Of a stretch of DNA of 64,000 bases, positions 2,012 to 47,363 are shown piece after piece. Every line of letters starts with the position of its first letter. Positions within the stretch are counted from its first letter, which is position 1. The notes under the pieces are model-generated. The model had not been told where the DNA came from. It did not search any database and saw only the letters and a program-made list of their open reading frames with translations. Source of the stretch: Nitrospira sp. Lineage in GTDB: Bacteria > Nitrospirota > Nitrospiria > Nitrospirales > Nitrospiraceae. The position numbers were made by a program, and so were the translations under genes. The DNA is taken from contig JANDJL010000011.1 in the NCBI GenBank assembly GCA_024330965.1, positions 1-64,000 of the forward strand. Reading direction: 5' to 3'.

Positions 2012-2145
2012 TATTTCAACGACCTCGCTCTCCAAACGGAGTTCGTGGACCCCGTGTCGTAACTGGTTCATCGTGACGCCTGGTCCACCGTCCCATTCCA
2101 TGCATCCGCATCATGCTCGGCTTGATCGATAGCGCTTCGCTCTGA

Positions 2146-3489
2146 TTACAGCGCCTTTGCACGGTATGTCAGCATGCGCGGCTTCGCATAGTCGTCGATG
2201 ATTCGCCCGGCCTCACTCCGCTCTTTGTCGGAACGCAACGTCGAGAGATACTTTTCCCTCAACGCCGGATCGGGAGTCGGGATGAGCGCATAGGTCAGCA
2301 CGACTTCCACGAATGCGGGGACCGTGCCGTCAGGGAGCGTCAAGGCAAACGGCACTTTTCTCGTCGTCCCACCCTTGATAAAAGGATCCGGAATCGGACC
2401 ACGCAGAATCCTGTCGTACGGCAATCCAAATTGTTTGGTCTCCTCGGCCAATACTCGCCCCTGAGCGTCCTTGGCCGTCACGATCAGAAAGAATTGCTTC
2501 AAGACCGGATCTCCGTCCGGAAAACTGTGGGGAAGGCTCCCGATCTTGACCAGCGCGATTCCCTCAAGCACGCCCCCGGCATGTTTCGCATCGATGTCAA
2601 TGCGCGGCGTCCATTCGGCTTGCAGATTGCGATTCCTCAGCATGGTACCGGCCCCGACCACGCCTCGAAACCAATGACGCCCAATGGCTCTGGTAATGGC
2701 TCCCCGCCTCGACGTCGAACTGCCGGTCGAGGGCTCCATGTGGCAATCCTGACAGACCATGCCCGCGAGAATTTCTCCGGGCAGCTCCTTTTGCGTGACG
2801 TCTTTGACCTTGTCGAAATGACACGCCGCGCAGAATGCCACCTCGCGAAACACCGGCGCCTGCGCCGCCTGATGAACCAAATTCTCCTCGGGATCGGCAA
2901 ACGGTCCATAGAAGACGGGGCCCGGTTTAATCCTGAACGTTGGCGGAGGATTCGGTGTCTGCTCTACCGCATGAATCAGGTGGCACGACGCACAGCCGAT
3001 TCCTTCGACAGAAGGCGCCCCAGTCAAAATACGCGCCGTCATCTTCTCCGCGTGCTGGGGGAAGACGGTGGCGGCGGGAACATGGCATGACAGGCAGCGG
3101 CTGTGCTCCTCGGGCGTGGGGTTCGTCTGAACCCACAACCCCAAGATCGTCCGAAACACAGGAGATTCCAACGACGTGCCGTGCAACAATGCCGCGTCAA
3201 CTCGTCCGAACGTTTTCAAATCCGGCGTCTGTTCTCTGGCGCCTTTCCACTCTTCATAGTGTCGCACGTGACATTGCTTGCACTCTTCTGATCGGATGAA
3301 GACTTTCTCAATTTCCGCTATCCACTCGGGCACCGACCCACTGTCCGCCTCCTGAGCAATCGCCTGCCCATGATAAACACCGTGCAAAAGGCCGATCAGA
3401 CTGACAAACGACAGGAGGCAGCACCTCGCGATGCCCCAGCCGATCTGCAACCTACGGCCCTGTCCGTTCGCCTCCCCCTTCACCACCAT
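2146..3489 (-). CDS. Exported pentahaem c-type cytochrome, paralogue of the downstream gene
   Basis: A 447-residue protein with a signal sequence (LLSFVSLIGLLHGVYHGQAI) and five haem motifs at about residues 70, 132, 166, 220 and 246: CKQCH, CLSCH, CASCH, CAACH and CQDCH. A haem-free C-terminal beta-rich region follows. The motif order, the GPF/GPY segment after the third haem and the overall length match the neighbouring 767-2011 protein, which points to tandem duplication. The start codon at 3489 overlaps the stop of the PDZ-like gene as ATGA, so translation is probably coupled; the frame is open to 3531, but that would overlap more. A periplasmic electron-transfer role near the NxrC-like protein at 3936 is inferred. 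Confidence 0.85.
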   Translation of the reverse strand: MVVKGEANGQGRRLQIGWGIARCCLLSFVSLIGLLHGVYHGQAIAQEADSGSVPEWIAEIEKVFIRSEECKQCHVRHYEEWKGAREQTPDLKTFGRVDAALLHGTSLESPVFRTILGLWVQTNPTPEEHSRCLSCHVPAATVFPQHAEKMTARILTGAPSVEGIGCASCHLIHAVEQTPNPPPTFRIKPGPVFYGPFADPEENLVHQAAQAPVFREVAFCAACHFDKVKDVTQKELPGEILAGMVCQDCHMEPSTGSSTSRRGAITRAIGRHWFRGVVGAGTMLRNRNLQAEWTPRIDIDAKHAGGVLEGIALVKIGSLPHSFPDGDPVLKQFFLIVTAKDAQGRVLAEETKQFGLPYDRILRGPIPDPFIKGGTTRKVPFALTLPDGTVPAFVEVVLTYALIPTPDPALREKYLSTLRSDKERSEAGRIIDDYAKPRMLTYRAKAL

Positions 3490-3929
3490 CAATCCCGCTT
3501 GCAGCCGACAAAATGAAAATTCACACCCCATCCGACAGGATCGCCCGGGTCGGCCGGCTCATAGGTGCCCACGGTGAAGTTGCAGCTTTTCATCGCTTTC
3601 TTCAAAGCCAGCCCGAACTCCATCATGTTCCGAATTTCCTGCTTATCGATTTCCTTGATCACCGACCGAACCTTGATACCGGCGTAGTCTGCCCGCGAAT
3701 TGCCGATGACTTCGAACACCGCCACCCCTTGCGGCCGTTGAAGCTTCAGCTCCCGTTGAATCTCCTCATCCACCTCGCCGACCACGACGCCGAATTCTTC
3801 TCCCAGCCGAGCCGCTTCTTCTTCCGTCATGATGTGGCTCTGCACCGCGTCTTCGGCAAACGTGAGGTCGGCGGCCAGCAAGACGGCAAACAGCAGCAGC
3901 AGCGCTGGTCGGCGGTACCTTGTTTTCAT
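3489..3929 (-). CDS. Small secreted protein with a PDZ-like domain
   Basis: 146 residues. A signal peptide (RRPALLLLFAVLLAADLTFA) is followed by a region ending in a PDZ-like segment: GVAVFEVIGNSRADYAGIK, then an IKEIDKQEIRNMMEF stretch that matches the 'recognise and bind C-terminus' fold of periplasmic PDZ proteins. No protease domain is attached. Two cysteines late in the protein (about 115 and 143) could form a disulfide. The gene is 6 bases downstream of the NxrC-like gene and overlaps the next cytochrome by ATGA, so it belongs to one transcription unit with electron-transfer proteins. It could act as an assembly or scaffold factor for them; that is inference. Confidence 0.7.
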   Translation of the reverse strand: MKTRYRRPALLLLFAVLLAADLTFAEDAVQSHIMTEEEAARLGEEFGVVVGEVDEEIQRELKLQRPQGVAVFEVIGNSRADYAGIKVRSVIKEIDKQEIRNMMEFGLALKKAMKSCNFTVGTYEPADPGDPVGWGVNFHFVGCKRD

Positions 3930-33906: not shown

Positions 33907-34521
33907 TTAACTTCCAACGGGAGAGGGTCCCGCCATTTTTCTGGCTGTCTCCAACTCCTCTGGCGTATTGACATTGAAAAAAGACCGTCCCCCTGGATCA
34001 AGACCGCTTATTTCCGCCTGCTGGACCCATCGAACTCGAAGACTTGCTTCATTGACAACGTCTTTGATACTGAGCCGGCCGCTCCGGACCATTGTCTCGA
34101 TTACCGGCAGACACCGACCGCTATAGAGCGCATGCGTCGGTTGCGGGCCAAACTCGGAACGAGGCATGACTACATCCACGTGGTTTTTCAACGAAACCAG
34201 GTATTGAATCACGATCGGACTTATGAACGGCATGTCACAAGCAACCGCAAAAATATATGGTGTCTTCGATAGTTTCAATCCTGTGTAAATCCCCCCTAGG
34301 CTTCCACAATTGGGGATAATATCCCGCCACACCGGTACCCTTGCCTCGATCACCGTGGAATCATCGCCGATCACAATGCTCACGCTCTGAAAGACACCCT
34401 GCAATACAGCGAGGCTTCTCTCAAGAAGAGTGTGTTCCCCGACAAAAAGAAATCTTTTGTCTTTTCCCATCCGCCGACTTCGGCCACCGGCGAGAAGAAT
34501 ACCCGTGACGTCGGAGATCAT
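33907..34521 (-). CDS. mobA: Molybdenum cofactor guanylyltransferase
   Basis: 204 residues. The N-terminus GILLAGGRSRRMGKDKRFLF is the GTP-binding signature of the MobA family, and FAVACDMPFISPIVIQYL holds the metal-binding Asp. QPTHALYSGRCLPVIE and FFNVNTPEELETAR finish the fold. It turns molybdopterin into bis-MGD, the cofactor of nitrite oxidoreductase and other DMSO-reductase family enzymes, which fits the genomic context. The ATG at 34521 follows AGGGGAGAGG; the longer frame to 34653 crosses a terminator. Co-transcribed with the GT9 gene. Confidence 0.9.
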   Translation of the reverse strand: MISDVTGILLAGGRSRRMGKDKRFLFVGEHTLLERSLAVLQGVFQSVSIVIGDDSTVIEARVPVWRDIIPNCGSLGGIYTGLKLSKTPYIFAVACDMPFISPIVIQYLVSLKNHVDVVMPRSEFGPQPTHALYSGRCLPVIETMVRSGRLSIKDVVNEASLRVRWVQQAEISGLDPGGRSFFNVNTPEELETARKMAGPSPVGS

Positions 34522-34550
34522 CCTCTCCCCTCTGTAAGGATCAATGAGGA

Positions 34551-34583
34551 AAAACAAAAAGGGGGTGGGATTTTCCCACCCCC
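34551..34583 (-). terminator. Strong rho-independent terminator
   Basis: Read on the minus strand: GGGGGTGGGA, loop AAA, TCCCACCCCC, then TTTTTGTTTTT. A perfect ten-base stem with a U tract, 40 bases downstream of the stop of the cytochrome fusion gene (34622). It ends the respiratory operon and separates it from mobA. Confidence 0.9.
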
Positions 34584-34621
34584 TCTCTCCCTTGCCAATA
34601 TTTTTGTGATACCTGACCCGT

Positions 34622-36397
34622 TTACAGAGTTTTTCCCTTCTTCTTGTTGGCACGGCGCGTCAATACCCACCCCTCGAGAAATACGACGCCGACGGCAATG
34701 ACAACAGGATAAATGTAGGTCTCCTGTGGAATTGGAGGATTCATAAACGTGTAATAAAACGCAGACACGGCCATTTTTCGACCTGCATCCCCGTTATGGC
34801 CGTCCCATGCGAAAAAGACCGTGGGAATATACTGGCCGACTTCAAAAAACGTGTCTTCATCATAGTCCTGGTCTTTCTTGTTTCCCAGGGGACGTTCGAT
34901 CATCACATACCAACGACCATTCTTCCATTCGCTTTTCAGGACTTTAAGATGCTCCTCGTAGTTATCACGTTCCTCAAAGTCCTTATCCCATCCAGTCCCT
35001 TTGAAAGCCCTGATGGAACCATCGGCTTCCCACTTCACGATATCGACCGGGAATTGCTCGTTCGTTCCGAACAGATACCGCGGCTTAATGGGAGCGGGGA
35101 GTTCCTTCCATTTGACGGGAGTTTCAATGGCGATGGCGTCATTATAGACCGGATAGTTATTCTGCTTCGCCGCTATGGAACCTTCTTCTCCGGTGGCCGG
35201 CTCTTGCTCTGGAATGTCGATATTGACTTCAGTCGGTGCCCAGGGCAACTTGCCCTCAGCCACGCTCTTTGTTCGGTCATCCCATTCCAAGAGATAGGCA
35301 ATGGACTTATCGTTGTACAAGGACCGAACCCATATGTCGTCAATTCGATTGACGAAATTTCTCGGCTTATGGGTGATCTGCCCGCCCATCGCGACATAGC
35401 GCCGCGGAGCATTTTTCCACGCTTCGGCCTCGATATCGGCCGGAATTTCCCCTTCCACTAGATTTGATGGAATCACAAAATCGATTTTAGGCTTATCGGT
35501 TAACGGATCTATCGGAAGAGGCTTCCCATCAGCATCACGCTCACACAAGGAATTCACAAAATTGGCGATGTCCCACCGCTCATCTATTGTCGTGTTGTCC
35601 GCAAACGACGGCATGGGAGTTCCATTGATCCCTGTCGAGAAGGTTCTAAAAATGTTGACCACATTGTAAGGATCTTGCCGACTCCCTCTAAAGTTCCAAC
35701 ATTTATGCCAATTAGCCGGCTGGATAGAAAATCCCCAATCGTCTTTCAAATTGAACGCGTTGCCATCACCACGACCTTCAAGGCCATGGCATTCAATACA
35801 TTTCTTTTCAACAATCAGTTCGGCCCCCCTTTTGAGGCTTTCTTCCGTTGGCGGTTTGGGCTTGAGTTCTGCCACGTTGAGAATAGTTTGGGTCTCCGAC
35901 TGTTTATCCGTAAAGCTCCTATCCTTCACAAGCTGGGTTGTGACAAAGGCCAGCACTTGGAGTCGTTGTTCCTCTGTCAGAATACCTTCCCACGGCGGCA
36001 TAGCCGATCCCGGTAATCCGTGCGTCACCGTGTCGAAGAGGTCATTTTGACCGCGAACGGGCTTTTTGGCGTCGAACAGAGGAAGTTCACCGCTGGCCGT
36101 ATGACGAATTTTAAACGTCCCTTGATTAAAATTACGCGGGCGAGGCCAGAGTCGATCAGCGCCAGGCCCATCGCCCGCACCATCCACACCATGACACCAC
36201 ACGCATTTCGTAAAATATACCCTTTTACCGGCCTCGATCATTTCAGCGGAAGGTGGCGCCGCGAGCTCTCCCTTTTTAAATCCTTCTGGAATCCCCCCTT
36301 GAGCAAAAGCCGGAATTTCCATGCCAACGGTCATTAAAACGGCCCCGAAGGCAATTGATCGCATCAGCCCAGCCTTCTGAGTTCCACTGTTTTGCAT
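34622..36397 (-). CDS. Dihaem cytochrome c fused to an NxrC-like haem-b domain, membrane-anchored
   Basis: 591 residues. Signal peptide (SIAFGAVLMTVGMEIPAFAQ), two cytochrome c domains with CVWCH at about 65 and CIECH at about 200, each with a downstream Met ligand region (GLPGSAMPPW, INGTPMPSF), then an EB_dh/NxrC-like domain (VAMGGQITHKPRNFVNRIDD, SIAYLLEWDDRTKSVAEGKL, QYIPTVFFAWDGHNGDAGRK) and a C-terminal membrane helix (YPVVIAVGVVFLEGW). The CMGQ motif of the other NxrC candidates is missing. ATG 36397 follows GAGGAAGAGG. It closes the operon of two other cytochromes and the bd-like oxidase, so it likely moves electrons among haem c, haem b and that oxidase. A fusion of this kind is unusual outside Nitrospira-type organisms. 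Confidence 0.8.
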   Translation of the reverse strand: MQNSGTQKAGLMRSIAFGAVLMTVGMEIPAFAQGGIPEGFKKGELAAPPSAEMIEAGKRVYFTKCVWCHGVDGAGDGPGADRLWPRPRNFNQGTFKIRHTASGELPLFDAKKPVRGQNDLFDTVTHGLPGSAMPPWEGILTEEQRLQVLAFVTTQLVKDRSFTDKQSETQTILNVAELKPKPPTEESLKRGAELIVEKKCIECHGLEGRGDGNAFNLKDDWGFSIQPANWHKCWNFRGSRQDPYNVVNIFRTFSTGINGTPMPSFADNTTIDERWDIANFVNSLCERDADGKPLPIDPLTDKPKIDFVIPSNLVEGEIPADIEAEAWKNAPRRYVAMGGQITHKPRNFVNRIDDIWVRSLYNDKSIAYLLEWDDRTKSVAEGKLPWAPTEVNIDIPEQEPATGEEGSIAAKQNNYPVYNDAIAIETPVKWKELPAPIKPRYLFGTNEQFPVDIVKWEADGSIRAFKGTGWDKDFEERDNYEEHLKVLKSEWKNGRWYVMIERPLGNKKDQDYDEDTFFEVGQYIPTVFFAWDGHNGDAGRKMAVSAFYYTFMNPPIPQETYIYPVVIAVGVVFLEGWVLTRRANKKKGKTL

Positions 36398-36435
36398 AGC
36401 GTTCCTCTTCCTCAATGAACAAGTCGGAAATACGA

Positions 36436-37473
36436 TCAATCCCAGGTTCGTGGATAGTAGCCTGTATGCCAATATTCGAACAGGATGACCTTCCATATTT
36501 CATCAACCGTCAGGTGCTGTTCCCAAGGCGGCATAACGGATGCCCATGGAAACCCTTCATTTGGGAGACCAATCCCACCTTTTGCGACGCGCCAGAAGAT
36601 AAACGTCTCCTGTAACTGAGCAATTGTTCCCGGATCCGTGAAATTCGCTGGGATGGGGTTGAAAGCGAAAGCGTGCAGACCGCGGCCGTTTAAGTTATCG
36701 CCATGACAGAAGTGGCAATTTTGGAAAAATATTTCCCCACCTTCACGGACATACTTTAAGTAACCTTCAGCCTTTTCATCCCAAGGATTGGCATTCGGCT
36801 TCATGAGCCGCCCCATACCCTGCTCAACGATAAGCGAATTGGTATATTCTTGATCGTATTTGCCCTCAGGATTGACACGATACGGATTCAAGGAGGTTTG
36901 CAACACATAGGTCTTTCCGTGCACTTTGGTACTGGCAGGTGGAGCAGGATGCACAGTCCTCAATTCAATCGGCTCTTCCGATTTCGGCATCATAGCATTG
37001 TACGAGAACCCCCACGTAAGAATGGGAAGAGCGATCAAATAAACGTATCGAAGCACTTTATTGAAGCCAGTCTGAGCATCCAAGACATTCAAGATCGGCT
37101 GTTTGAATTTTTTCCAGTCTTCCTCGTTGGAGGAAACCCACATGAGCACGGCGACAAGCCCTACCGTTCCATACATGGCCCGGACGCTGAATGGAATGGG
37201 TGGGTAGATTCGATACTTAATGTAGAGAAGGAAGAAGATCCAAAATCCTATCCCTTGCCAGAACCGCGGAATTCCCATTCCCATTGCATTGAGCATATAG
37301 CTCAGTCCGGTAAACCCAAGAACGTAGCATCCGACCTCGAAGAGCATCTGCATCGGCATGTACCCTTCGACAAGACGAATCGTATTCGAAGGGATAATGT
37401 CGAATATCATTCCAGCCAGCAGCAGCAAACCGACAACCCCTACTAAGGCGCCGATCGACATCAGTGCTTTCAT
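36436..37473 (-). CDS. Membrane-anchored monohaem cytochrome c with four transmembrane helices
   Basis: 345 residues. Four or five hydrophobic helices in the first 160 residues (ALMSIGALVGVVGLLLLAGM, MLFEVGCYVLGFTGLSYML, GFWIFFLLYIKYRIYPPIPF, MYGTVGLVAVLMW) precede a periplasmic cytochrome c domain with CHFCH at 253-257 and a Met ligand in SVMPPWEQHL. It begins 48 bases downstream of the next cytochrome gene and ends 38 bases before the fusion gene. It is probably a subunit of the same membrane complex as the bd-like oxidase. Confidence 0.8.
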   Translation of the reverse strand: MKALMSIGALVGVVGLLLLAGMIFDIIPSNTIRLVEGYMPMQMLFEVGCYVLGFTGLSYMLNAMGMGIPRFWQGIGFWIFFLLYIKYRIYPPIPFSVRAMYGTVGLVAVLMWVSSNEEDWKKFKQPILNVLDAQTGFNKVLRYVYLIALPILTWGFSYNAMMPKSEEPIELRTVHPAPPASTKVHGKTYVLQTSLNPYRVNPEGKYDQEYTNSLIVEQGMGRLMKPNANPWDEKAEGYLKYVREGGEIFFQNCHFCHGDNLNGRGLHAFAFNPIPANFTDPGTIAQLQETFIFWRVAKGGIGLPNEGFPWASVMPPWEQHLTVDEIWKVILFEYWHTGYYPRTWD

Positions 37474-37521
37474 CGCTTACTCCCTTTACACATCCCAAAC
37501 GAAATATGGATCTTGCTCACC

Positions 37522-38832
37522 TTATGAAATTTTTGGCGGCGGTGCTCCAGCTTTTACCTGAGAGAGATAATCGACTATTTTCTTCAGAGCCCCGGCACTC
37601 AATTTTTGTCCGAATACTTTGGGCATCGTGTTGTCAGGGAACGGCTTGACCACGTATGCACTAGGATCGACAATTGACTCCATAATGTATTCGGCCGGAG
37701 ACTTGGCTGTTCCCTTGTAGTCAGGCGCTTTGATACGCTGAGCCGCCGTCGTTCCCTCCTCGAGCTTCGGACCAATAGTGCCGACGGCCCCAGGAATACC
37801 CGGTATCGTGTGGCAGGCCACACACTGGGCTTTGGCAAAAATTTGATCCACAGGCTCTGAGCCATCAGCCATTAAAGAGGTCGCTCCATCTGCCGGCTTG
37901 TCTTCCTGAAGCTGGGGACGCTCCCCTTCCGGGATAAACTTTTCATAGGACTTGATCATTTCCTCAAACGACGGAGGCTCCAATCCCTCTCGTACATACA
38001 TCCAGGTATCGACAGCCGCCAACTCTGGAAGACTCAGAGAGATCGGTGGCTTATGGATGGCTGGCATGGGACTTTCCCTATCGTTCGTCCCCTTCACCCC
38101 ATACCCTTCAACTACATAGCAGCTTGGACAAGCGTGAGACTCCGCTATGTATTCTTGAGCATTCTCTGCCGTGCCAGACCCCGGGAAAGCCTCCTTCACC
38201 GAATATTCTCGTTTAGCAGGATTTCCTTTAGAGTATTTCGGATCTTCCAACCGTTCCTTGGCACGATTAATCAGCCCAAGCAAATTTGGGGCACGCTCTC
38301 CCAACATGCCGGCATGGAACGCATGGCACAAGGGACATTGCCCTTTCCCAATCGCCCCCTGCTCTTTGTTTTTCCCGATTCCTCCAAAAATGATTTTCTC
38401 TCCCTCGTCGGCCAACTGCTGAGGCGTCATGGAACTGAAATCAAGCTTCTCTTCTACAGGAGGAAATCCCCCTTCTACCTGAGGAAGCCAGTTCCCATAT
38501 CCAGACAGAAACGCTGCGACAAAGAACATAAACCCACCGATCTTGAGCAACGCGCTCAGATTGGTGAAGTACAGCGCCATAATGAAAGACGTGGCGGTAA
38601 TCATCGCGAGAGAAACCGGCAGCAGCCTGCTTTCTCCATAAAAGTTGGTTTTGTAATTGGCGATCGCCACGAACAAGAGGAATGTCGAAACGATCCCGAT
38701 AAACGTCTTAAAAACCGCCCGTCTTTTGGCAGCAGGATCACTGATCGATACTTGAAAATAGACAAGCAGCCCAATCAGGATGGCAATCGCCATCCAACCC
38801 ATCGAAAGCGCCTCAGCAATCAAATTACCCAA
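37522..38832 (-). CDS. Membrane-anchored dihaem cytochrome c with a CPSCY loop
   Basis: 436 residues. Three helices (WMAIAILIGLLVYFQVSI, FKTFIGIVSTFLLFVAIA, LPVSLAMITATSFIMALYF; a fourth near 100) are followed by two cytochrome c domains with CPLCH at 166 and CVACH at 337. In the first domain ESHACPSCYVVEGYGVKG replaces the stretch that in the second domain reads ESIVDPSAYVVKPFPDNT; so Cys 235 and 238 are not a haem site but a modified loop, possibly a disulfide or metal pair. Each domain has a distal Met (SPMPAI, NTMPKVFG). It is next to the bd-like oxidase gene on the same strand. Confidence 0.8.
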   Translation of the reverse strand: MGNLIAEALSMGWMAIAILIGLLVYFQVSISDPAAKRRAVFKTFIGIVSTFLLFVAIANYKTNFYGESRLLPVSLAMITATSFIMALYFTNLSALLKIGGFMFFVAAFLSGYGNWLPQVEGGFPPVEEKLDFSSMTPQQLADEGEKIIFGGIGKNKEQGAIGKGQCPLCHAFHAGMLGERAPNLLGLINRAKERLEDPKYSKGNPAKREYSVKEAFPGSGTAENAQEYIAESHACPSCYVVEGYGVKGTNDRESPMPAIHKPPISLSLPELAAVDTWMYVREGLEPPSFEEMIKSYEKFIPEGERPQLQEDKPADGATSLMADGSEPVDQIFAKAQCVACHTIPGIPGAVGTIGPKLEEGTTAAQRIKAPDYKGTAKSPAEYIMESIVDPSAYVVKPFPDNTMPKVFGQKLSAGALKKIVDYLSQVKAGAPPPKIS

Positions 38833-38915
38833 GGTACTAACCCTCCTACCGCTTCACAAGAAGAGACCAACGACGATACCCTTCCTCGTAAAGCCGATCC
38901 TTAGATAAAAATCGA

Positions 38916-40832
38916 TCAATGGCTTCCAGCCGGTTGTGGGATAGCCCCAGGAACCCCGACTTTTGCCTCAACCGGAGCCTTCTTTGCCGTCAAACTGCCG
39001 AGCCAGAAGACAAAGAGAATGCTGATCCAGAAAAACAGAACGTTGGCCGAGATCACATTGGCGGCAAACCCTACCGTATGGGTATAGGCCCACGGAGAGT
39101 TATCCCGCATAATTTCATTGACATGCCAAAAGAGACGAACCGAGGAACGAATATACCCCATCAATCCCATCATCCAGGTAAAAGCAGTTGCCAGCATGAT
39201 GAGAGCATACTGGGAGCGGGCTGAAATTTTGCCCCATTCGATGGGCCCCATCTGCTTGGCACCTTTCATCATCATACTATTGAGGGTGAACATGAAAAAG
39301 AGGCACGACAGAGTCGTTGCAACTTGCGGCACAGACAGGCCAACACGCACGTTCGCAGGAATGTAATAGCCGTAAATCGCAAGGAATATGATGTTTATAT
39401 ATGCGCAGGTAAAAAACACCCCCATAAAGATATTGCCGAACCTTGCCCATGACACAGTTGAAACCTTGTTACCCCTCATGTACCACACAAAGCTCAGCAC
39501 CGTGGTCGTGATGATGACGTTGATGCCACCATTCTTCGCTGACATGACTCCATAGTTACCCAGAACTGGGTGCTGCTGCCCTCCCATCGCCTTCAATTCG
39601 GCCGGCGTCATCACCATGGTATGAGGGGTAATAAAGACCATAAACCCGCAGGCCAACAAAAAGACCAGGTACTTGATATACCGCTGATACTTCTCGGCAC
39701 CCCGCATACGGCCCATGGCCTGCCATAAGTAATAATTGGTGCTCAAGAACAGAATTCCTATCATAGTAGCCTGGATAATAAACAGCCACGCCAGCAGACC
39801 GCCCATGAGCGTGATCCCCATTTGCTGCCTGTAGGCATAGACCTCTCTCATCAGCCAATAGCCTGCAAATGGGAGAGGAATGAGGAACGCCACCCCGAGC
39901 GCCATTGCGATATAACCCATCCAATCGTAATGGGCTCGCTCTTCATCGGTCTTTGCAGCCAAAAACTTATAGGCCGCATAGGCAGCCACAACACCGCCCC
40001 CGAATGCCATGTTCCCGAGAATACGATGGAGATTTAGCGGATTCCACAAAGCCGTATGAATGACGTGCCAAATGTTGCCCAGATAGCGACCCTGTTCATC
40101 AACGCCGGCAGGCGACATCATGAAACCAATCCATGAATTCGCCAGGAACATGAGCAGCGTGCCAATCACGTTCAGCACGACAGACATGCTCAGGTGAATC
40201 CACTTCAGGAACCCCTCTTTCATCTTGTCCCAGCCATAATAATAAATGTAGAGGGTTCCACTCTCCGCCACAAACATCAAGGCATAGATATGCATCACGG
40301 GACGGAAGATGCTTGAGAGGTACGAGAAAAAGGTCGGATATAGCGTCAGGAATGTAAAAATAAGAATCCCGCCCAGGATGGCCGTCAACGAGTAGGCGGT
40401 CAGACTGATCTTAATAAAGTCGTATGCCAGTTGGTCATATCGCTTGGCAAGCGCCTTATCTTTGGTGACCACCCCCATGAACTCAATGATCATGCAGAAA
40501 ATCGGGACGGCAAGAACAAAGCTTCCATAATAAAGGTGCTGCTGATTGGCAAACCAGAGCAACACCCGACTTTCAAAGTTGTATCGCGGATAATCGGTGG
40601 GGCTATCCGTTGTCTTAGGAGCAGGAGCGCCAACCACAATGCCTTCGGTCTTGTAGTAGACATCCCGTGCCTTTTCAACTTTTTCGCCCTCTTTCTGCGC
40701 TCCCTCGGCGACTGGAGCCTCTTCACCTGTAGCCGGCGACGGAAGCGCCATAACGATCGGAAGCAGAAGAGCAACAACCATCGCGCTCAGCGCAATGATC
40801 GAGAGTAACTTCTTCCGGGTTACGACACCCAT
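38916..40832 (-). CDS. Cytochrome bd-like terminal oxidase, large membrane subunit (paralogue A)
   Basis: 638 residues and about fourteen predicted membrane spans after a signal-like N-terminus. Conserved with the second copy at 44432-46309 are QQH in the first core helix, IWHVIHTALWNPLNLHR, HTMVMTPAELKAMGGQQHP followed by VLGNYGVMSAKNG, and GLMGYIRSSVRLFWHVNEIM. Several histidines are placed inside helices as haem ligands. Such proteins from Nitrospira have been described as bd-like oxidases with features of their own. It is likely to reduce oxygen at the end of nitrite respiration, taking electrons from the c-type cytochromes encoded downstream. ATG follows AAGGAGGTATTTTC, an excellent site. 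Confidence 0.8.
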   Translation of the reverse strand: MGVVTRKKLLSIIALSAMVVALLLPIVMALPSPATGEEAPVAEGAQKEGEKVEKARDVYYKTEGIVVGAPAPKTTDSPTDYPRYNFESRVLLWFANQQHLYYGSFVLAVPIFCMIIEFMGVVTKDKALAKRYDQLAYDFIKISLTAYSLTAILGGILIFTFLTLYPTFFSYLSSIFRPVMHIYALMFVAESGTLYIYYYGWDKMKEGFLKWIHLSMSVVLNVIGTLLMFLANSWIGFMMSPAGVDEQGRYLGNIWHVIHTALWNPLNLHRILGNMAFGGGVVAAYAAYKFLAAKTDEERAHYDWMGYIAMALGVAFLIPLPFAGYWLMREVYAYRQQMGITLMGGLLAWLFIIQATMIGILFLSTNYYLWQAMGRMRGAEKYQRYIKYLVFLLACGFMVFITPHTMVMTPAELKAMGGQQHPVLGNYGVMSAKNGGINVIITTTVLSFVWYMRGNKVSTVSWARFGNIFMGVFFTCAYINIIFLAIYGYYIPANVRVGLSVPQVATTLSCLFFMFTLNSMMMKGAKQMGPIEWGKISARSQYALIMLATAFTWMMGLMGYIRSSVRLFWHVNEIMRDNSPWAYTHTVGFAANVISANVLFFWISILFVFWLGSLTAKKAPVEAKVGVPGAIPQPAGSH

Positions 40833-40913
40833 GAAAATACCTCCTTCACAAGCAGGACAATTACGCTAGAATTTTTTGTTCTCGCCGCCTATCTCCATTC
40901 ACGTTCGCTCAGC

Positions 40914-41045
40914 CTACTGGCGGAAGAGATACCAAAAATCCAACCCTTGCATATCCATCAAGTAATGATCGATCAACGTAAAGTACCCCACCGCGATGAC
41001 CAACGATACAATCACTGCGATGACCGGATTGTTCAGTGCGCTCAT
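40914..41045 (-). CDS. Small single-span membrane protein, 43 aa
   Basis: Starts MSALNNPVIAVIVSLVIAVG, with the hydrophobic helix continued as YFTLIDHYL and a tail MDMQGLDFWYLFRQ rich in aromatics. The ATG at 41045 has AGAGGAGAGAGG upstream. It lies 80 bases upstream of the bd-like oxidase, on the same strand. Size and place recall the tiny accessory subunits of cytochrome bd (CydX-like). Role inferred, but the gene itself looks real. Confidence 0.7.
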   Translation of the reverse strand: MSALNNPVIAVIVSLVIAVGYFTLIDHYLMDMQGLDFWYLFRQ

Positions 41046-41129
41046 ACCTCTTCTCTCCTCTTGACCATTTACCCCTCTTTCACAAAAAAACCGCTTGGGC
41101 CCGAACTGCACCCTGACATTCCTGGACTG

Positions 41130-41255
41130 TTAGCAGGGGCACTGAATACCCGCAAACCAATAAAAAAACCACAGCCCGACGGCACAGGTAATATAGAAAA
41201 TCATCTTGCCGATTTTGATTTTAACATCGCTATCCTGCTGTGTTGCCTCTGCCAT
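41130..41255 (-). CDS. Small single-span membrane protein, 41 aa
   Basis: Reads MAEATQQDSDVKIKIGKMIF, then YITCAVGLWFFYWFAGIQCPC. One helix (MIFYITCAVGLWFFYWFAGI) with a charged N-terminus and a CPC end. ATG 41255 follows AAGGAGCTATAG, a strong ribosome site. Upstream of the 43-aa gene on the same strand, so the first gene of the bd-like oxidase operon. It is too short for usual gene finders. The terminal CPC is unusual for a membrane microprotein. Confidence 0.72.
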   Translation of the reverse strand: MAEATQQDSDVKIKIGKMIFYITCAVGLWFFYWFAGIQCPC

Positions 41256-41307
41256 CTATAGCTCCTTGTTCCTGATTAAGAGGAATGAACGACCGGCCTT
41301 ACGTTTC

Positions 41308-41336
41308 TTGACAGAGAGGTGACCCTGTGTTAATCA
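41308..41336 (+). promoter_or_regulatory. Candidate sigma-70 promoter for the 34-aa plus-strand gene
   Basis: TTGACA at 41308-41313, 17 bases, then TAATCA at 41331-41336, about 48 bases before the ATG. The -35 is perfect and the -10 weak. The same 130-base gap must also hold the minus-strand promoter of the oxidase operon. Confidence 0.45.
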
Positions 41337-41384
41337 ACTCCTCGCAAACGCGGTATGAACTTTTGAAGTTGCAAGGAAAAAATT

Positions 41385-41489
41385 ATGTCAAAAAATGCAA
41401 AAGTGTTTGACATTATAGTTTTGGCGGGAATGGTTGTCAACATCATTTTGGCCGTGTTTTTGATCCTGTACTACTTCGACTTTCTCTAA
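41385..41489 (+). CDS. Small single-span membrane protein, 34 aa, plus strand
   Basis: Reads MSKNAKVFDIIVLAGMVVNI then ILAVFLILYYFDFL. Nearly all of it is one hydrophobic helix with a positive N-terminus. AAGGA at 41373-41377 gives a good ribosome site and a candidate promoter lies upstream. It is divergent from the oxidase operon and convergent with the FGE-like gene, whose stop is 3 bases beyond. Composition and the ribosome site argue for a true gene. Possibly another accessory subunit of one of the oxidases. Confidence 0.6.
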   Translation: MSKNAKVFDIIVLAGMVVNIILAVFLILYYFDFL

Positions 41490-41491
41490 CA

Positions 41492-42403
41492 TCAAGTCTT
41501 TGCTTTTCTCTCTTCATTTTCGGAAATTTCCGACGTTGCACAGCGAAACCCTATGGTCTCATCTCGGAAGTCAGGCATCATTTTGCTTCGACTCGTAATG
41601 CGGATGTCGGCGCCGGTGGTCGTGTATCCTCCCCCTCGAAGCACCCGATAGGTCCCATACTCAGGACCTGTAGGGTCCTTGTCAGGTGAATCTCTATAAT
41701 ATGTTTCTTGGTACCAATCGGCGACCCATTCCATCACGTTGCCCGCTCCATCCATGACTCCATATGGGCTCTGGTCCGTTTTGAAACTGCCAACCGGAGC
41801 AGACACCTCGTATCCATCATGCACTCGAGCCCAGTTGGCGCCGTTGGCCAACCCGTTATTCCCCCAAGGCCAGAGCCTCCCGTCGCTACCGCGCATGGCC
41901 TTTTCCCACTCCGCCTCCGTCGGAAGACGCCTCCCCTTCCATCGGCAATATGCCTCTGCATCGTCCCAGGAAACGTACACGACCGGTTGATTAGGCCCCT
42001 TCATCTTTCCGCCGCTCTTGGCATACCGTGCCGGCAAACCCGGTTTTCGATGTCCGGTCGCCAGAACAAATTGCTGATATTGAGAATTAGTCACTTCGTA
42101 TCGATCGATGAAAAACTCTTCTAAATAAATTGTCCGTTGCGGTTGTTCGTCAAATCCTCCACTCTCGGTCCCACGAATAAACGGTCCGGCTGGAATCCTC
42201 ACCATCTCTTCTTCGATCGGCTCTTCTTTGGACACAGTGTCGGCCTCTGGTCCATCTATGGGGATCGCCTCTCCCGGAATCGCTCCCCCCAACGGCTCTT
42301 CATATGGCGTTAGTGTTGTACCCTTCATAATGCCCGCTATGGGAAGAGCGGCACAGACCAACACCACGATCAGAAACACGACTTTGAACTTTGTCTCGAG
42401 CAT
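41492..42403 (-). CDS. Membrane-anchored FGE-fold (SUMF1-like) protein, copy 1
   Basis: 303 residues from ATG 42403. One N-terminal helix (FKVVFLIVVLVCAALPIAGI), then the FGE/SUMF1 domain: EEMVRIPAGPFIRGTESGG, FFIDRYEVTNSQYQQF, VSWDDAEAYCRWKGRRLPTE, GVMDGAGNVMEWVADWYQET, VLRGGGY and ETIGFRCATSEI. The active-site cysteine pair of true formylglycine-generating enzymes (in the RGGSW...C...C region) is missing; SRSKMMPDFRDETIGFRC holds only the structural C-terminal Cys. So it is probably a structural or binding protein. It follows copy 2 by 7 bases, which makes them a pair. Position next to oxidase genes suggests a role in the respiratory complex. Confidence 0.82.
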   Translation of the reverse strand: MLETKFKVVFLIVVLVCAALPIAGIMKGTTLTPYEEPLGGAIPGEAIPIDGPEADTVSKEEPIEEEMVRIPAGPFIRGTESGGFDEQPQRTIYLEEFFIDRYEVTNSQYQQFVLATGHRKPGLPARYAKSGGKMKGPNQPVVYVSWDDAEAYCRWKGRRLPTEAEWEKAMRGSDGRLWPWGNNGLANGANWARVHDGYEVSAPVGSFKTDQSPYGVMDGAGNVMEWVADWYQETYYRDSPDKDPTGPEYGTYRVLRGGGYTTTGADIRITSRSKMMPDFRDETIGFRCATSEISENEERKAKT

Positions 42404-42410
42404 GCCCGCC

Positions 42411-43331
42411 TCATGGAGCAGCAACTGATCCGTTTTCTTGATCAACATCCGCTGCGCAACGGATTCCGATCGTGATATCCGCACGCCAGTGTTTTGCCGC
42501 AAATCGCTTGGAGAGTCTCGCATTATGCGCTGTTTCTCTCCATGATCCGCCGCGGACCACTTTGAGGTCGCCGTCCTCCGGCCCCTTGGGATCACGATAC
42601 GGAGACTTCTTGTAATAGTTCTCGTCGTACGAATCGGCGACCCACTCCGCAACATTGCCAGTCATATCATACAGTCCGTACGGACTCCGCCCCGTCTCAA
42701 ACGAACCGGGAGGAGCAAGATATTTATACCCGTCTTCGCTCCCATCCAAATTGGCGTGATCCGGAGCAAACTTATCGCCCCATGCGTACTTCCTCTTCCC
42801 CTCGCCGCGGCCTGCCTTTTCCCATTCCGCCTCCGTGGGAAGGCGCTTGCCGGCCCATTTACAATAGGCCGCCGCGTCGCTCCAAGAGACGCTCATGGCG
42901 GCAAACTCGGGTTGCAGCAGCTTAGATTGGTCGTCCTCAAACACTTCGATCCTCGGCATCGGGCGCTTCGTCATTTTGGCAAATCGCATATATTCCGCCT
43001 GCGTCACTTCCTTCAAATCAATATAGAATCCTTTTAAGAACACTTGATGTTCGGGGGCTTCGTCCGGATCACCGTCGTTGCTCCCCATAATGAACGGCCC
43101 CTCCGGGATATGGACCATTTCACGTCCTTCGTCGCCGATTTTTGTTTTGTACATCGAATAGTCTTGGGACATCGCTTTGGGCGCAGCCGCCTGAGTTTCG
43201 GATGCCACGGATTTCGCAAGTTCTTTGATCTTGTTCGCCTTATACGACTCATACACCAGCATGCCGATCAGTCCAAAAAACGACGCAAAGACAAAAATGA
43301 TCGACCCATACAACACGCCTCTATTTTCCAC
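42411..43331 (-). CDS. Membrane-anchored FGE-fold (SUMF1-like) protein, copy 2
   Basis: 306 residues. One helix (GSIIFVFASFFGLIGMLVY), a coiled linker (ESYKANKIKELAKSVASETQ), then the FGE domain: MVHIPEGPFIMGSNDGDPDE, FYIDLKEVTQAEYMRFA, VSWSDAAAYCKWAGKRLPTE, LYDMTGNVAEWVADSYDENY and KVVRGGSW. As in copy 1, the catalytic cysteine pair is missing (RLSKRFAAKHWRADITIGIR then CAA). Copies 1 and 2 share the same domain order and are adjacent, so arose by duplication. Periplasmic, N-anchored. It lies 17 bases downstream of the small glycine-rich membrane protein. Confidence 0.82.
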   Translation of the reverse strand: MENRGVLYGSIIFVFASFFGLIGMLVYESYKANKIKELAKSVASETQAAAPKAMSQDYSMYKTKIGDEGREMVHIPEGPFIMGSNDGDPDEAPEHQVFLKGFYIDLKEVTQAEYMRFAKMTKRPMPRIEVFEDDQSKLLQPEFAAMSVSWSDAAAYCKWAGKRLPTEAEWEKAGRGEGKRKYAWGDKFAPDHANLDGSEDGYKYLAPPGSFETGRSPYGLYDMTGNVAEWVADSYDENYYKKSPYRDPKGPEDGDLKVVRGGSWRETAHNARLSKRFAAKHWRADITIGIRCAADVDQENGSVAAP

Positions 43332-44431: not shown

Positions 44432-46309
44432 TCAGGTTTCATGCGAAGAGACCGGCGACAACAGCGGCGCATTCGTATTATGACGCTCTTCTCCCATTAC
44501 CGGTCGCCGACCCCATTGACACATCCAAAAGAGAACCAGCACCGCTCCCCAAAAGACCACCATGTTCAATGTCACCATTTTCGCGGCGAACGCCAGATCC
44601 GGAGTAAACGCCCAGGGCGACACGTCGGCCATCACTTCGCTCACGTGCCACGCCAATCGACCTGATGAGCGAATATAGCCCATCAGCCCCATCACCCAAC
44701 TGAAGGCCGCCGCCATTATAAACAGCACCACCATCCCACGCGCTGGAATGTTCCCCCATTGGATCGGCCCATGAACGATCGACCGCTTCAGCATGGCGCG
44801 ATTGATCAACAATCCGACGACAATGACCGTCAAGGTCGTGAAGGCTTGCGGCGCCGATAATCCCACTCGAATGTTCGCCGGCAGATAGAATCCATAAACG
44901 GACAGCCCCACGACATTTGCGAGACCGACCGCAAACAGTATCGCGATCACCACGTTGCCCGTTGTGACCCACGGCACCGTCATGGTCCGATTCGCCCGCC
45001 GCATATACAAGAAGCTGAGGGCCGTACAGAGGAGAATGACGTTGATGGCTCCATTCTTGGACGACATGACTCCATAGTTCCCAATAACCGGATGCTGCGC
45101 GCCACCCATCGCCTTCATCTCTCCCGCCGACATGAGCAGCGTATGAGGAGTCAACCAAATGAACAGCGCCAACAAGAGTCCCCCGAACACCAATTGATAG
45201 TAGGGTTGATATCGTTCCGCTCCCTTCAACCGTGCCATGCCTTGCCAGATGTAATAATTGATGCCCAGAAAGAGAGCCCCGATCAGCAACGCCTGCACGA
45301 CAAACATCCAGGTCAGCAGCCCTCCCATCATGGTCACGCCCATAGTCTGCCGAAATGCAAAAACCGACCGCATCAACCAATACCCGGCGATCGGCATGGG
45401 CACCAACGCGCATACCGTCACGACGAGAAAGACGTACCCCACCCAATCAAAATAGGCCCGTTCCTCGGTCGTCTTGGCGGTGAAGAACCGGTAACAGGCG
45501 TACGCCAACACGACCGCCCCTCCGGACATGATGTCGGCCAGAAACCGATGCACGTTGAGCGGATTCCAGAGGACGGAATGCAACAGATGCCACCCATTCC
45601 CAAGAAACCGACCTTGAGCATCCACGCCCGCCGGCGCCATCATGAATGCGGACCAGGCATTGGCCAACAGCAACAGAGCGGTCCCCACGATGTTCGTCGC
45701 AACCCCGATGGCCGCATGTATCCATTTCAGGCCCCGCTCGGTCATCCGATCCCAACTATAGTAATACAAGATCAGGAGCACGGACTCGATCACGAATACG
45801 GCGGCATAGGCCGGCATAAACGATTTGAAAGTTCCGCCCATGTAAGTCATGAAGCTCGGATAGAGCCCGATAAACATCGCGAGCATCAGACTTCCGATGA
45901 TGGCGGTCACGGAGAGCGCCAACACCGCCACCTTCGCCAGATCTCTTGCCAACCCGTCATACCGGAGCGACAACGCCGGCTTGGAGGTCATCAACCCCAG
46001 AAATTCCAGCAGGGCGCAAAAGAGCGGCAACGCCAACACGAATCCGCCGAAATACGTGTGCTGTTGGGTTACAAACCACACCAGGGCCCGGCTGTCGAAT
46101 GAGCCAATCTGCGGGTACGCCGTTTCGTGCGGGGCAGGCGCGGCGGGACCTTGCGGCACGCCGGGCGTGTTGAAATAGACGTCCAGCGACTCCTCAGCTA
46201 AGGAAGCCCCTTCCATACCGAGCCCCAACAAGACGACCAGGGCCGCGATGGCTCCCATCAGATCGAGCGCTCCCCATTTCTCTCGTCGCAAACGACCCCG
46301 AACGACCAT
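44432..46309 (-). CDS. Cytochrome bd-like terminal oxidase, large membrane subunit (paralogue B)
   Basis: 625 residues and about fourteen spans. The layout is the same as paralogue A: QQHTYFGGFVLALPLF, GWHLLHSVLWNPLNVHR, LTPHTLLMSAGEMKAMGGAQ then HPVIGNYGVMSSKNG, and GLMGYIRSSGRLAWHVSEVM. The N-terminal extension is different and shorter. There are no cytochrome c genes directly beside this copy; instead a DUF3047 protein and an unusual membrane protein flank it. The start at 46309 is one base after the stop of the gene at 46311, a tight coupling. The two oxidases may work at different oxygen levels or in different complexes; inferred. Confidence 0.8.
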   Translation of the reverse strand: MVVRGRLRREKWGALDLMGAIAALVVLLGLGMEGASLAEESLDVYFNTPGVPQGPAAPAPHETAYPQIGSFDSRALVWFVTQQHTYFGGFVLALPLFCALLEFLGLMTSKPALSLRYDGLARDLAKVAVLALSVTAIIGSLMLAMFIGLYPSFMTYMGGTFKSFMPAYAAVFVIESVLLILYYYSWDRMTERGLKWIHAAIGVATNIVGTALLLLANAWSAFMMAPAGVDAQGRFLGNGWHLLHSVLWNPLNVHRFLADIMSGGAVVLAYACYRFFTAKTTEERAYFDWVGYVFLVVTVCALVPMPIAGYWLMRSVFAFRQTMGVTMMGGLLTWMFVVQALLIGALFLGINYYIWQGMARLKGAERYQPYYQLVFGGLLLALFIWLTPHTLLMSAGEMKAMGGAQHPVIGNYGVMSSKNGAINVILLCTALSFLYMRRANRTMTVPWVTTGNVVIAILFAVGLANVVGLSVYGFYLPANIRVGLSAPQAFTTLTVIVVGLLINRAMLKRSIVHGPIQWGNIPARGMVVLFIMAAAFSWVMGLMGYIRSSGRLAWHVSEVMADVSPWAFTPDLAFAAKMVTLNMVVFWGAVLVLFWMCQWGRRPVMGEERHNTNAPLLSPVSSHET

Positions 46310-46310
46310 G

Positions 46311-47363
46311 CTACACCTTTGATCCAGGAACAGTCGGCATCGGCGTGCCCACATGTTTTGCTTTTCCAAGAATGCCCATCACAAAAGGACACCGAAGCAG
46401 GGCATCATCGATCTTTTGTCCTTGTTGTTCTTCAACGTGCCGGCGATACCCCAAATAGTATCCGTAGAGCGCCATGACTCCGCTCACAAAGGCCCCGATG
46501 GTAACGGAAAAACCGGGCGAGATGGTCGGCAGTTGCAATACAAACAGACCGACACCCATCGCGACCAAATAGTACGTGGACGAAAACGCAAGCCCCGGCC
46601 ACCACCAATACTTGAAGAGCTCGGAAAGACTCGTCGCGGCGAACCGCGCTGTCCATGAGGCTCGTCCGCTCAGACCGCCGAAATAGGCACACAAGGTGAT
46701 CGCGCCCCCCAGCAACGTCACGGCGAGCAATGGCACGATGACCGTCTGCTGCCCCATAACCACCTGATCGAGGGAAGCGGCTGCCGCACCGATCACCAAT
46801 CCGGCCGCTACCCAAGGACCGACCTGGACCGCGAAGCCCCTTATCATTGCTCGCAACGGTGCTCCGTCCGGGAATGTGGGAAACGGTTTTCCCATTGCGG
46901 CGATCCGACGCACATGGCCGATTTCGAACGCGTCCCGCGCAACCGACGTACAAGCGACCATGATCGCCATCATGGCAGGACCATCCGGATGGTGCAGGTA
47001 GTTGTACCCCACCATCCATAACAGCGCCAACACCAACAATGAGAGCTGCACGCCGTAGACCGCTCCGATCCAGAAAATCATCCAGGCGAGAACACGTCCG
47101 CCGTCTTGGCGGGCAATCACCGCCCAGGAGGCGGATCGCCCGATCCGATAGGCGAGCAGAGCCGTCGCCATTGCGATCAGACCGCTTAACGAAAGCAATA
47201 TCAGCGGCTCCGCGATCGGAACCAGGTGTTTGGCCATGCGATACACCACGAACGCGCCCAAGCCCGACACAAGCATGATCGTCCGTTTCCGCTTTCGGAC
47301 GGACTCCTCCGTCACAGCCAGGCTCAAACTGGGAAGCACCCGCAAGGCCATCCGATGCAACAT
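46311..47363 (-). CDS. Polytopic membrane protein beside oxidase B
   Basis: About 350 residues, eight to nine predicted spans (TIMLVSGLGAFVVYRMA, PLILLSLSGLIAMATALLAY, VLAWMIFWIGAVYGVQLSLL, LLAVTLLGGAITLCAYFGGL, SVTIGAFVSGVMALYGYYLG). No family is recognised. HHPDGPAMMAIMVACTSVAR carries polar residues in mid-membrane. The start at 47363 has GGTGGGGACAAG upstream; the frame remains open to 47621 but overlaps the PCP-reductase gene. Its stop is one base before the oxidase B start, so the two are probably a functional pair: possibly a second subunit. Uncertain. Confidence 0.6.
   Translation of the reverse strand: MLHRMALRVLPSLSLAVTEESVRKRKRTIMLVSGLGAFVVYRMAKHLVPIAEPLILLSLSGLIAMATALLAYRIGRSASWAVIARQDGGRVLAWMIFWIGAVYGVQLSLLVLALLWMVGYNYLHHPDGPAMMAIMVACTSVARDAFEIGHVRRIAAMGKPFPTFPDGAPLRAMIRGFAVQVGPWVAAGLVIGAAAASLDQVVMGQQTVIVPLLAVTLLGGAITLCAYFGGLSGRASWTARFAATSLSELFKYWWWPGLAFSSTYYLVAMGVGLFVLQLPTISPGFSVTIGAFVSGVMALYGYYLGYRRHVEEQQGQKIDDALLRCPFVMGILGKAKHVGTPMPTVPGSKV

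What the first reader, a model, noticed from the sequence alone, without database searches (positions are those of the whole stretch)
34622..41255. Putative respiratory complex: NxrC-like fusion, two anchored cytochromes c, bd-like oxidase and microproteins
Six minus-strand genes with small gaps and one strong terminator at the end encode a 14-span oxidase, two membrane-bound cytochromes c and a cytochrome c/haem-b fusion. The haem c, haem b and oxidase parts could form one chain from a periplasmic donor to oxygen, a layout different from standard bc1 and bd complexes.
Basis: partly seen in the sequence, partly recalled or inferred. Interest (0 to 1): 0.7.

Follow-up and report, generated by a model that had tools for sequence, protein, structure and literature searches.

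The report
Bd-type respiratory complex with three microproteins
In a nitrite-oxidising bacterium related to Nitrospira, one compact gene cluster encodes a bd-oxidase-like membrane protein, three cytochrome proteins and three tiny membrane proteins; relatives of this set recur in many other bacterial groups, and the parts likely form one machine that would carry electrons from outside donors such as nitrite to oxygen.

Summary
In detail: six minus-strand genes (34622-41255, gaps 38-84 nt, strong terminator) encode two microproteins, a CydA-type protein of about 14 helices ("bd3"), two anchored cytochromes c and an NxrC-like haem c/haem b protein. The cluster is in print as bd-like_3/alt_NxrC_2 of Nitrospira, with reverse electron flow proposed; the wider OR-N family is called an oxygen reductase.
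New here: (1) bd3, two cytochromes c and NxrC-like form one module in 62 of 80 named loci (best 80 of a capped scan; 17 of the other 18 are cut short), and 32 of 35 carrier genomes tested show no NxrA. (2) Monohaem c and NxrC-like are fused in 16 of the 80. (4) A perfect TTGACA-17-TATAAT lies antisense inside the third gene in 15 of 15 Nitrospirales loci examined. (5) CydA's H19 equivalent is kept in 240 of 240 bd3-type hits but is Met in 48 of 48 of a branch seen in nxrABC-type operons.
I favour a cytochrome c oxidase (0.47) over a cytochrome c:quinone reductase (0.32).

The parts
34556..34588 (-). Intrinsic terminator: GC-rich hairpin followed by a T tract
   Evidence: 15 pairs, dG -29.3 kcal/mol, z -3.95, 0 of 200 shuffles as stable
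34622..36397 (-). alt_NxrC_2-type protein (591 aa): hydrophobic N-terminus, two CXXCH c-haem sites, EB_dh haem b domain, C-terminal span
   Evidence: PF00034, PF13442, PF09459 43.4 bits over its cut-off 33.3; scanned as 34622-36400; dihaem part matches PDB 6h5l_B, 2e-42; span 562-580
36436..37473 (-). cytc1: membrane-anchored monohaem cytochrome c (345 aa)
   Evidence: PF13442 28.8 over cut-off 27; one CXXCH; N-terminal span
37522..38832 (-). cytc2: membrane-anchored dihaem cytochrome c (436 aa, TTG start), with an extra non-haem CPSC pair
   Evidence: two CXXCH, four hydrophobic spans; CP[SNA]C in all 22 own-class cytc2 ORFs listed
38916..40832 (-). bd3: CydA-superfamily (bd-like_3) membrane protein, 638 aa, about 14 helices
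40914..41045 (-). mp43: single-span microprotein (43 aa) with a QGL motif
   Evidence: pN/pS 0.38; 91 hits, all beside bd on its strand; 0 reversed-ORF hits
41130..41255 (-). mp41: single-span microprotein (41 aa), ending CPC in the Nitrospirales loci read
   Evidence: pN/pS 0.26; 76 hits, 76 just upstream of bd on its strand
41385..41489 (+). mp34: divergent single-span microprotein (34 aa), nearly invariant in the order
   Evidence: pN/pS 0.14; 83 hits; 0 reversed-ORF hits
41412..41440 (-). Predicted operon promoter TTGACA-17-TATAAT, antisense inside mp34
   Evidence: 12 of 12; 12 of 12 in 15 of 15 Nitrospirales loci examined; fixed ATT ATA and GTT GTC codons
44432..46369 (-). bd4: second bd-like paralogue (bd-like_4 of the literature), 50% identical to bd3, upstream of bd3 in the Nitrospirales loci that reach so far

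Best explanation
These genes encode a CydA-superfamily membrane protein, a dihaem and a monohaem anchored cytochrome c, an NxrC-like haem c/haem b protein and three single-span microproteins, which likely form one membrane complex that would take electrons from periplasmic donors such as nitrite oxidoreductase and is predicted to pass them to oxygen. Proposed path: donor (NXR or a soluble cytochrome) to the NxrC-like haem b and its two c haems, to the monohaem and dihaem cytochromes, to a b-type haem near the periplasmic side of bd3 (H269 and M343 are candidate ligands), and to a reaction haem on H99 near E190. In layout it would be a bd-type counterpart of a cbb3 oxidase: a catalytic membrane subunit fed by anchored mono- and dihaem cytochromes c, with an added gamma-type input subunit. 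The microproteins would stabilise the haem core as CydX does in canonical bd oxidase. The operon is predicted to start from the promoter buried antisense in mp34. Shown: the genes, their conserved order, fusions, fixed residues, purifying selection and promoter-sequence conservation. Inferred: assembly into one complex, haem loading, electron order, oxygen as acceptor, promoter activity.
For: Order cytc2 > cytc1 > NxrC-like after bd3 in 62 of 80 named loci (46 separate, 16 with cytc1 and NxrC-like fused); of the other 18, 17 have 2,225 bp or less after bd3 and one, L110, has room but no NxrC-like gene within 6.5 kb. Same order in 22 of 22 own-class loci with the cluster (L065-L084, L097, L101) and 14 of 15 Nitrospinota loci. 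A cytochrome c/bd fusion is listed in a distant branch (P0289). Microprotein homologues beside bd, with no hit at E 1e-3 among 41,335 reversed ORFs. H99 in 240 of 240 bd3-type proteins, the top 120 of each of two capped searches; H99 aligns to E. coli CydA H19 and E190 to E107. A branch with Met at H99, 48 of 48: its three fetched loci are nxrABC-type operons, and those 3 genomes carry COX1-family genes, while 9 of 11 own-class genomes tested carry none. G131 (96% complete) has no COX1-family gene, no CydB and bd3 as its only bd-type gene. A cytochrome b gene follows the module in 3 of 80 loci, L113, L125 and L128, as complex III beside an oxidase would. Published: the N. moscoviensis cluster is among the 40 most transcribed genes (PMC6606698, passages read).
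Confidence: 0.47

Rival explanations
1. The complex is a cytochrome c:quinone oxidoreductase, an alternative complex III: it would push high-potential electrons from nitrite into the methyl-plastoquinone pool for CO2 fixation, consuming proton motive force.
Against: No quinone site was recognised; the H19 equivalent is invariant in the bd3 hits although a quinone reductase would not need a reaction haem; a cytochrome b gene sits next to 3 of 80 modules, which would be redundant; ActF likeness probably holds for CydA too and was not controlled.
Confidence: 0.32
2. It is a membrane docking and wiring station for NXR and other periplasmic enzymes: bd3 holds electron-transfer haems only and hands electrons on to the oxidase set on C46, without a reaction of its own.
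For: NxrC-like subunit; extra bd3 copy beside nxrAB in two genomes; a four-gene paralogue lies beside bc1 and another bd-like gene on C46.
Against: G131 and G259 hold bd3 with no other bd-type gene found (G259's completeness is not told); a 14-helix haem core is more than an anchor needs.
Confidence: 0.13
3. The genes are co-transcribed but do not form one complex; the microproteins serve regulation or assembly.
For: mp34 is on the other strand, and in some loci lies 2-5 kb from bd; Nitrospinota loci show none of the microproteins (0 of 15), nor do the extra copies L098-L100.
Against: Monohaem c/NxrC-like fusions in 16 loci, constant order across phyla, and positional fixation of mp41 and mp43.
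Confidence: 0.08

Closest known systems
bd-like_3 / alt_NxrC_2 cluster of Nitrospira moscoviensis (PMC6606698, passages read)
   Same: Same four large genes, with a second bd-like gene nearby; this window holds the corresponding cluster
   Different: The passages read do not mention the microproteins, the buried promoter, or carriers without NXR
OR-N family of the cytochrome bd superfamily, CydAA' (Murali et al. 2021, not held; known here through passages of PMC10839748, PMC12342949 and PMC12324825)
   Same: CydA-type core, c-type cytochrome as presumed donor
   Different: The published oxidase pair is OR-N1 plus OR-N2; bd3 can be the only bd-type gene found in a genome (G131, G259). Which OR-N subclade bd3 belongs to was not tested
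Canonical cytochrome bd, CydABX
   Different: No CydB in the operon, three microproteins instead of one, encoded before and not after the large gene
cbb3 cytochrome c oxidase
   Same: Layout: catalytic membrane subunit with anchored mono- and dihaem cytochromes c
   Different: Catalytic subunit is CydA-type, not haem-copper; extra NxrC-like subunit
CydX, CydY, CydZ small proteins (PMC4325964, passages read)
   Same: Small, one span, in bd-type operons
   Different: No Pfam match for mp41 and mp43; encoded upstream of the CydA-type gene
Alternative complex III (ActF subunit)
   Different: No iron-sulfur or other Act-type family among the scanned operon proteins

Membership tests
Cytochrome bd superfamily, OR-N type | CydA homology and fold | tested here: met
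Cytochrome bd superfamily, OR-N type | CydA H19 and E107 equivalents | tested here: met
   H99 and E190; H99 in 240 of 240, E190 in 239 of 240 listed hits
Cytochrome bd superfamily, OR-N type | CydA H186 equivalent | tested here: inconclusive
   H269 is invariant but aligns four residues away from H186
Cytochrome bd superfamily, OR-N type | No quinol-binding Q loop | tested here: inconclusive
   Profile alignment ends at CydA residue 196, before the Q loop; absence is stated in PMC3578206
Cytochrome bd superfamily, OR-N type | Oxygen reduction | not testable with these tools
   Needs enzyme assay
Canonical cytochrome bd (CydAB) | CydB partner in the operon | tested here: not met
   No PF02322 among the scanned operon proteins; the only CydB match in the genome is on C19
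Canonical cytochrome bd (CydAB) | b595 ligand E445 and b558 ligand M393 | tested here: inconclusive
   Not covered by hhalign; the low-identity MAFFT alignment puts other residues there
CydX-type small subunit | Pfam small-subunit family match | tested here: not met
   No family for the 41 and 43 aa proteins at E up to 1; mp34 was not scanned
cbb3 oxidase | Haem-copper catalytic subunit | tested here: not met
   bd3 matches PF01654, not PF00115; no PF00115 hit in the genome
bc1 complex | Rieske protein and cytochrome b in the cluster | tested here: not met
   None among the scanned operon proteins; such genes lie on C46
Alternative complex III | ActF-type fold | tested here: inconclusive
NxrC / DMSO reductase type II gamma | EB_dh haem b domain | tested here: met
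   PF09459 43.4 bits, cut-off 33.3
NxrC / DMSO reductase type II gamma | TIGR03477 curated cut-off | tested here: not met
   68 bits against 169.85

The most novel reading that the evidence does not exclude
A seven-subunit respiratory complex that has no name yet - bd-type haem core, dihaem c, monohaem c, NxrC-type haem c/b input subunit and three microprotein subunits - is a widespread cytochrome c oxidase of nitrite, sulfur and iron oxidisers and the main nitrite-fed oxidase of Nitrospira, and its operon is driven from a promoter written into the opposite strand of one of its own subunit genes.
Probability: 0.25. Interest if true: 0.8.

Novelty: new variant of a known kind. Interest (0 to 1): 0.6.

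Why it matters
How Nitrospira passes nitrite electrons to oxygen and to CO2 fixation is an open question, and this highly transcribed cluster has been read as a reverse-flow or anchor complex while its family is called an oxygen reductase. The module, the fusions and the microproteins define what to purify and tag; the H99 state separates a possibly catalytic form from a form seen in nxrABC-type operons and makes the oxidase question testable. The spread to carriers without NXR weakens the published inference that the cluster exists for nitrite oxidation. A promoter fixed within the antisense of a 34-codon gene would be a clean case of one DNA stretch under two constraints.

Tried and rejected
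Rejected: that the cluster is specific to nitrite oxidisers (36 of the 80 named loci, lying in 35 genomes, were tested; 32 of 35 have no NxrA at E 1e-50; their completeness is not told, so absence is soft). Rejected: canonical bd oxidase (no CydB in the operon). Rejected: mp34 as a mere echo of the promoter (it is also found in loci where it lies 2-5 kb from bd). Dropped on rechecking: H404 as a second marker of the Met branch (Arg in 40 of 70 of P0290-P0360), and H269 as a direct match to CydA H186 (four residues off). Not used: the Met branch as strict anaerobes; its three genomes carry COX1-family genes and two of three a superoxide dismutase. Superoxide dismutase did not help to tell aerobes (5 of 14, own genome none). 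The ActF match does not tell function. Membership of bd3 in a numbered OR-N subclade was not tested; "OR-N1-like" and "OR-N2-like" for the C46 genes rest on likeness to published descriptions. No anammox locus was retrieved, so H99 there is unknown. The total of promoter-like and terminator-like sites in the region is no more than chance (7 against 8.1, and 7 against 7.7); the case rests on the 12/12 score and its conservation. pS of mp34 (0.53) is lower than of the other genes (about 0.8), which raises its pN/pS. Nitrospinota loci show no microprotein at this sensitivity; L079 and L080 show no mp41 or mp43, L083 no mp41, L081 no mp34, and L089-L096, L098-L100, L102-L104 and L175 none of the three. 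Loci are not all independent: L086/L106 and L088/L140 are the same contigs by length and title, and L136/L146 look like near copies. The final microprotein HMMs were trained on their own hits; seed HMMs from Nitrospirota alone already found 26, 10 and 31 of the 80 named loci for mp34, mp41 and mp43 at E 1e-3. Of the 37 mp34 hits outside the expected place, only 25 were printed. In five loci (L123, L142, L149, L157, L164) the gene at the dihaem place has one CXXCH, and a few others have odd counts from merged or split ORFs.
Full report
OBSERVATION. The six minus-strand genes are where the finding puts them. Gaps from stop to start are 84, 81, 83, 48 and 38 nt. The last gene is better started at 36397 than at the ORF list's 36496, because the longer form overlaps the preceding gene. 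A 15-pair hairpin with a T tract closes the cluster. Pfam and NCBIfam give CydA subunit I for the 638 aa protein, cytochrome c domains for the two anchored cytochromes, and cytochrome c plus ethylbenzene dehydrogenase (haem b) for the last protein. Pfam gives no family for the 41 and 43 aa proteins at E up to 1.

WHAT IT IS IN PRINT. The genome is of a nitrite oxidiser by gene content: NxrA (1145 aa) and NxrB (429 aa) lie on contig C6, and NxrA has relatives in 73 of 245 genomes of the phylum sample at E 1e-150, mostly of the same order. The cluster is the one described in N. [quoted passage not shown] PMC3578206 (passages read) describes the 14-helix protein of Nitrospina, states that haem b ligands are kept and quinol residues missing, and proposes that it might act like an alternative complex III. 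PMC10839748 and PMC12342949 (passages read) follow Murali et al. 2021 (not held) in placing such proteins in the OR-N family and take OR-N1 plus OR-N2 as the likely terminal oxidase. So the cluster is known; its function is open.

PARALOGUES AT HOME. The genome has four bd-like genes (five matches, two of them in one gene): bd3; bd4 at 44432-46369 of the window; and two on contig C46, where an OR-N2-like gene, a Rieske-type gene, a cytochrome b gene and a second module (OR-N1-like, cytochrome c, cytochrome c, NxrC-like) lie together (Rieske and cytochrome b named from their sequences, not scanned). The second module has the same gene order as the window's. The genome shows no COX1-family gene and one CydB.

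THE MODULE IS WIDESPREAD. In the phylum sample 110 of 245 genomes have a relative of bd3 at E 1e-30. In 62 of the 80, bd3 is followed on the same strand by cytc2, cytc1 and the NxrC-like protein; 17 of the other 18 have 2,225 bp or less left, and one (L110) has room but no NxrC-like gene within 6.5 kb. In 16 of the 62 the monohaem cytochrome and the NxrC-like protein are one polypeptide with three or more CXXCH, a fusion that argues for contact. In five of the 62 the gene at the dihaem place has one CXXCH. Within the own class 22 of 22 loci with the cluster keep the order. Nitrospinota: 69 of 77 genomes have a relative of bd3 at E 1e-40, and 14 of 15 fetched loci the complete module. Of 35 genomes behind 36 of the 80 named loci, 32 show no NxrA at E 1e-50; their completeness is not told, so single absences are weak.

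MICROPROTEINS. mp41 and mp43 precede bd3; mp34 (41385-41489, plus strand) points away and was not in the finding. All three are under protein-level selection. Seed HMMs from Nitrospirota and then iterated HMMs were run over 41,335 ORFs of 25-400 aa from 132 loci. After iteration mp41 has 76 hits, all just upstream of a bd gene on its strand; mp43 has 91, 89 at the expected place and two more only because the bd ORF is called longer; mp34 has 83, of which 46 are divergent within 1.2 kb upstream of bd, the rest (25 of 37 printed) on the bd strand or up to about 5 kb off. The same ORFs reversed give no hit at E 1e-3 for any. Of 68 named loci with at least 800 bp upstream, 58 have mp34, 53 mp41, 64 mp43 and 49 all three; of 34 such Nitrospirota loci, paralogues and extra copies included, 21, 19, 20 and 18; of 15 Nitrospinota loci, none. 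Two of the class-level loci (L079, L080) show no mp41 or mp43. I found no mention of these proteins in the passages read, and the search for such a paper listed none that names them.

A PROMOTER INSIDE A GENE. The only 12-of-12 sigma-70 match in 34400-41800 is TTGACA-17-TATAAT at 41440-41412 on the minus strand, about 156 nt before mp41 and wholly inside mp34; weaker matches in the region are no more frequent than in shuffles. It is perfect in 15 of 15 Nitrospirales loci examined. The mp34 codons that spell it are fixed (ATT 15/15, ATA 15/15, GTT 15/15, GTC 15/15) while most other codons of the conserved core vary synonymously; ATA is 19 of 231 isoleucine codons in seven window genes. The 15 are related, so this is not 15 independent events. 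The promoter's activity is predicted, not measured.

LINKS TO MOLYBDENUM ENZYMES. An extra bd3 copy lies directly before nxrAB in L098 and L099. In L137, L156, L162, L165, L171 and L173, Aio/Idr-type small and large subunit genes with two MauG-type genes lie near the module, and in L176 the AB pair alone was seen; in L137 they lie upstream on the other strand. Of the large subunits scanned, those of L137 and L176 pass the arsenite-oxidase-type cut-off and those of L162 and L173 fall short (both cut by the locus end). The set resembles iodate reductase idrABP1P2 (PMC8692401, passages read). Such links fit either a cytochrome-to-quinone connector or an oxidase that shares the cytochromes.

JUDGEMENT. 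One complex with periplasmic haem input is well supported by inference. As to the acceptor, the fixed H19 equivalent, its loss in a branch whose sampled genomes have another oxidase, and genomes with no other recognised oxidase (G131 for the three types tested; four own-order genomes for haem-copper) favour oxygen; reported anammox carriers, operon links with molybdenum enzymes, and the unmatched further haem ligands favour the connector. On rechecking, the H186 match and the H404 marker fell away, so I lowered the oxidase from 0.50 to 0.47, raised the quinone reductase from 0.30 to 0.32 and the docking reading from 0.12 to 0.13, and lowered the novel case from 0.27 to 0.25.

Noticed in passing
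window 44432-46369 (-): A second bd-like gene (bd4), 50% identical to bd3, keeps its place upstream of bd3 in the Nitrospirales loci that reach so far, with two short genes and two FGE-sulfatase-domain genes between.
   Followed up: partly
window 41492-43331 (-): Two neighbouring formylglycine-generating-enzyme-like (PF03781) genes are kept beside the cluster in Nitrospirales and in several other Nitrospirota families; their role is unknown.
   Followed up: no
L098 (7203-9134) and L099 (7083-9254): An extra bd3 copy (74-78% identical) sits directly before nxrA-nxrB on the same strand.
   Followed up: partly
L093-L095: A branch of bd-like proteins, seen in nxrABC-type operons, has Met in place of H99 (48 of 48 database relatives aligned).
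   Followed up: yes
L137, L156, L162, L165, L171, L173, L176: Aio/Idr-type molybdenum enzyme genes, in six of the seven with two MauG-type peroxidase genes, lie a few kb from the module.
   Followed up: partly
L116, L118, L120, L121, L124, L127, L135, L143 and others: Two complete modules in tandem, the first with a more distant bd gene (about 40% identical to bd3).
   Followed up: partly
window 38119-38130 (-), cytc2 residues 235-238: A conserved non-haem CP[SNA]C pair in the first cytochrome domain, in 22 of 22 own-class ORFs listed and absent in L086-L088; mp41 ends in CPC in the Nitrospirales loci.
   Followed up: partly
P0289: A 699 aa protein of the Met branch listed with cytochrome c and bd-subunit-I domains in one chain.
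   Followed up: no
L121, L133, L135, L144, L161, L165, L173: A SCO1/SenC-type gene (one member scanned) lies near the module.
   Followed up: no
window 767-3531 (-): Two adjacent genes with five CXXCH motifs each.
   Followed up: no
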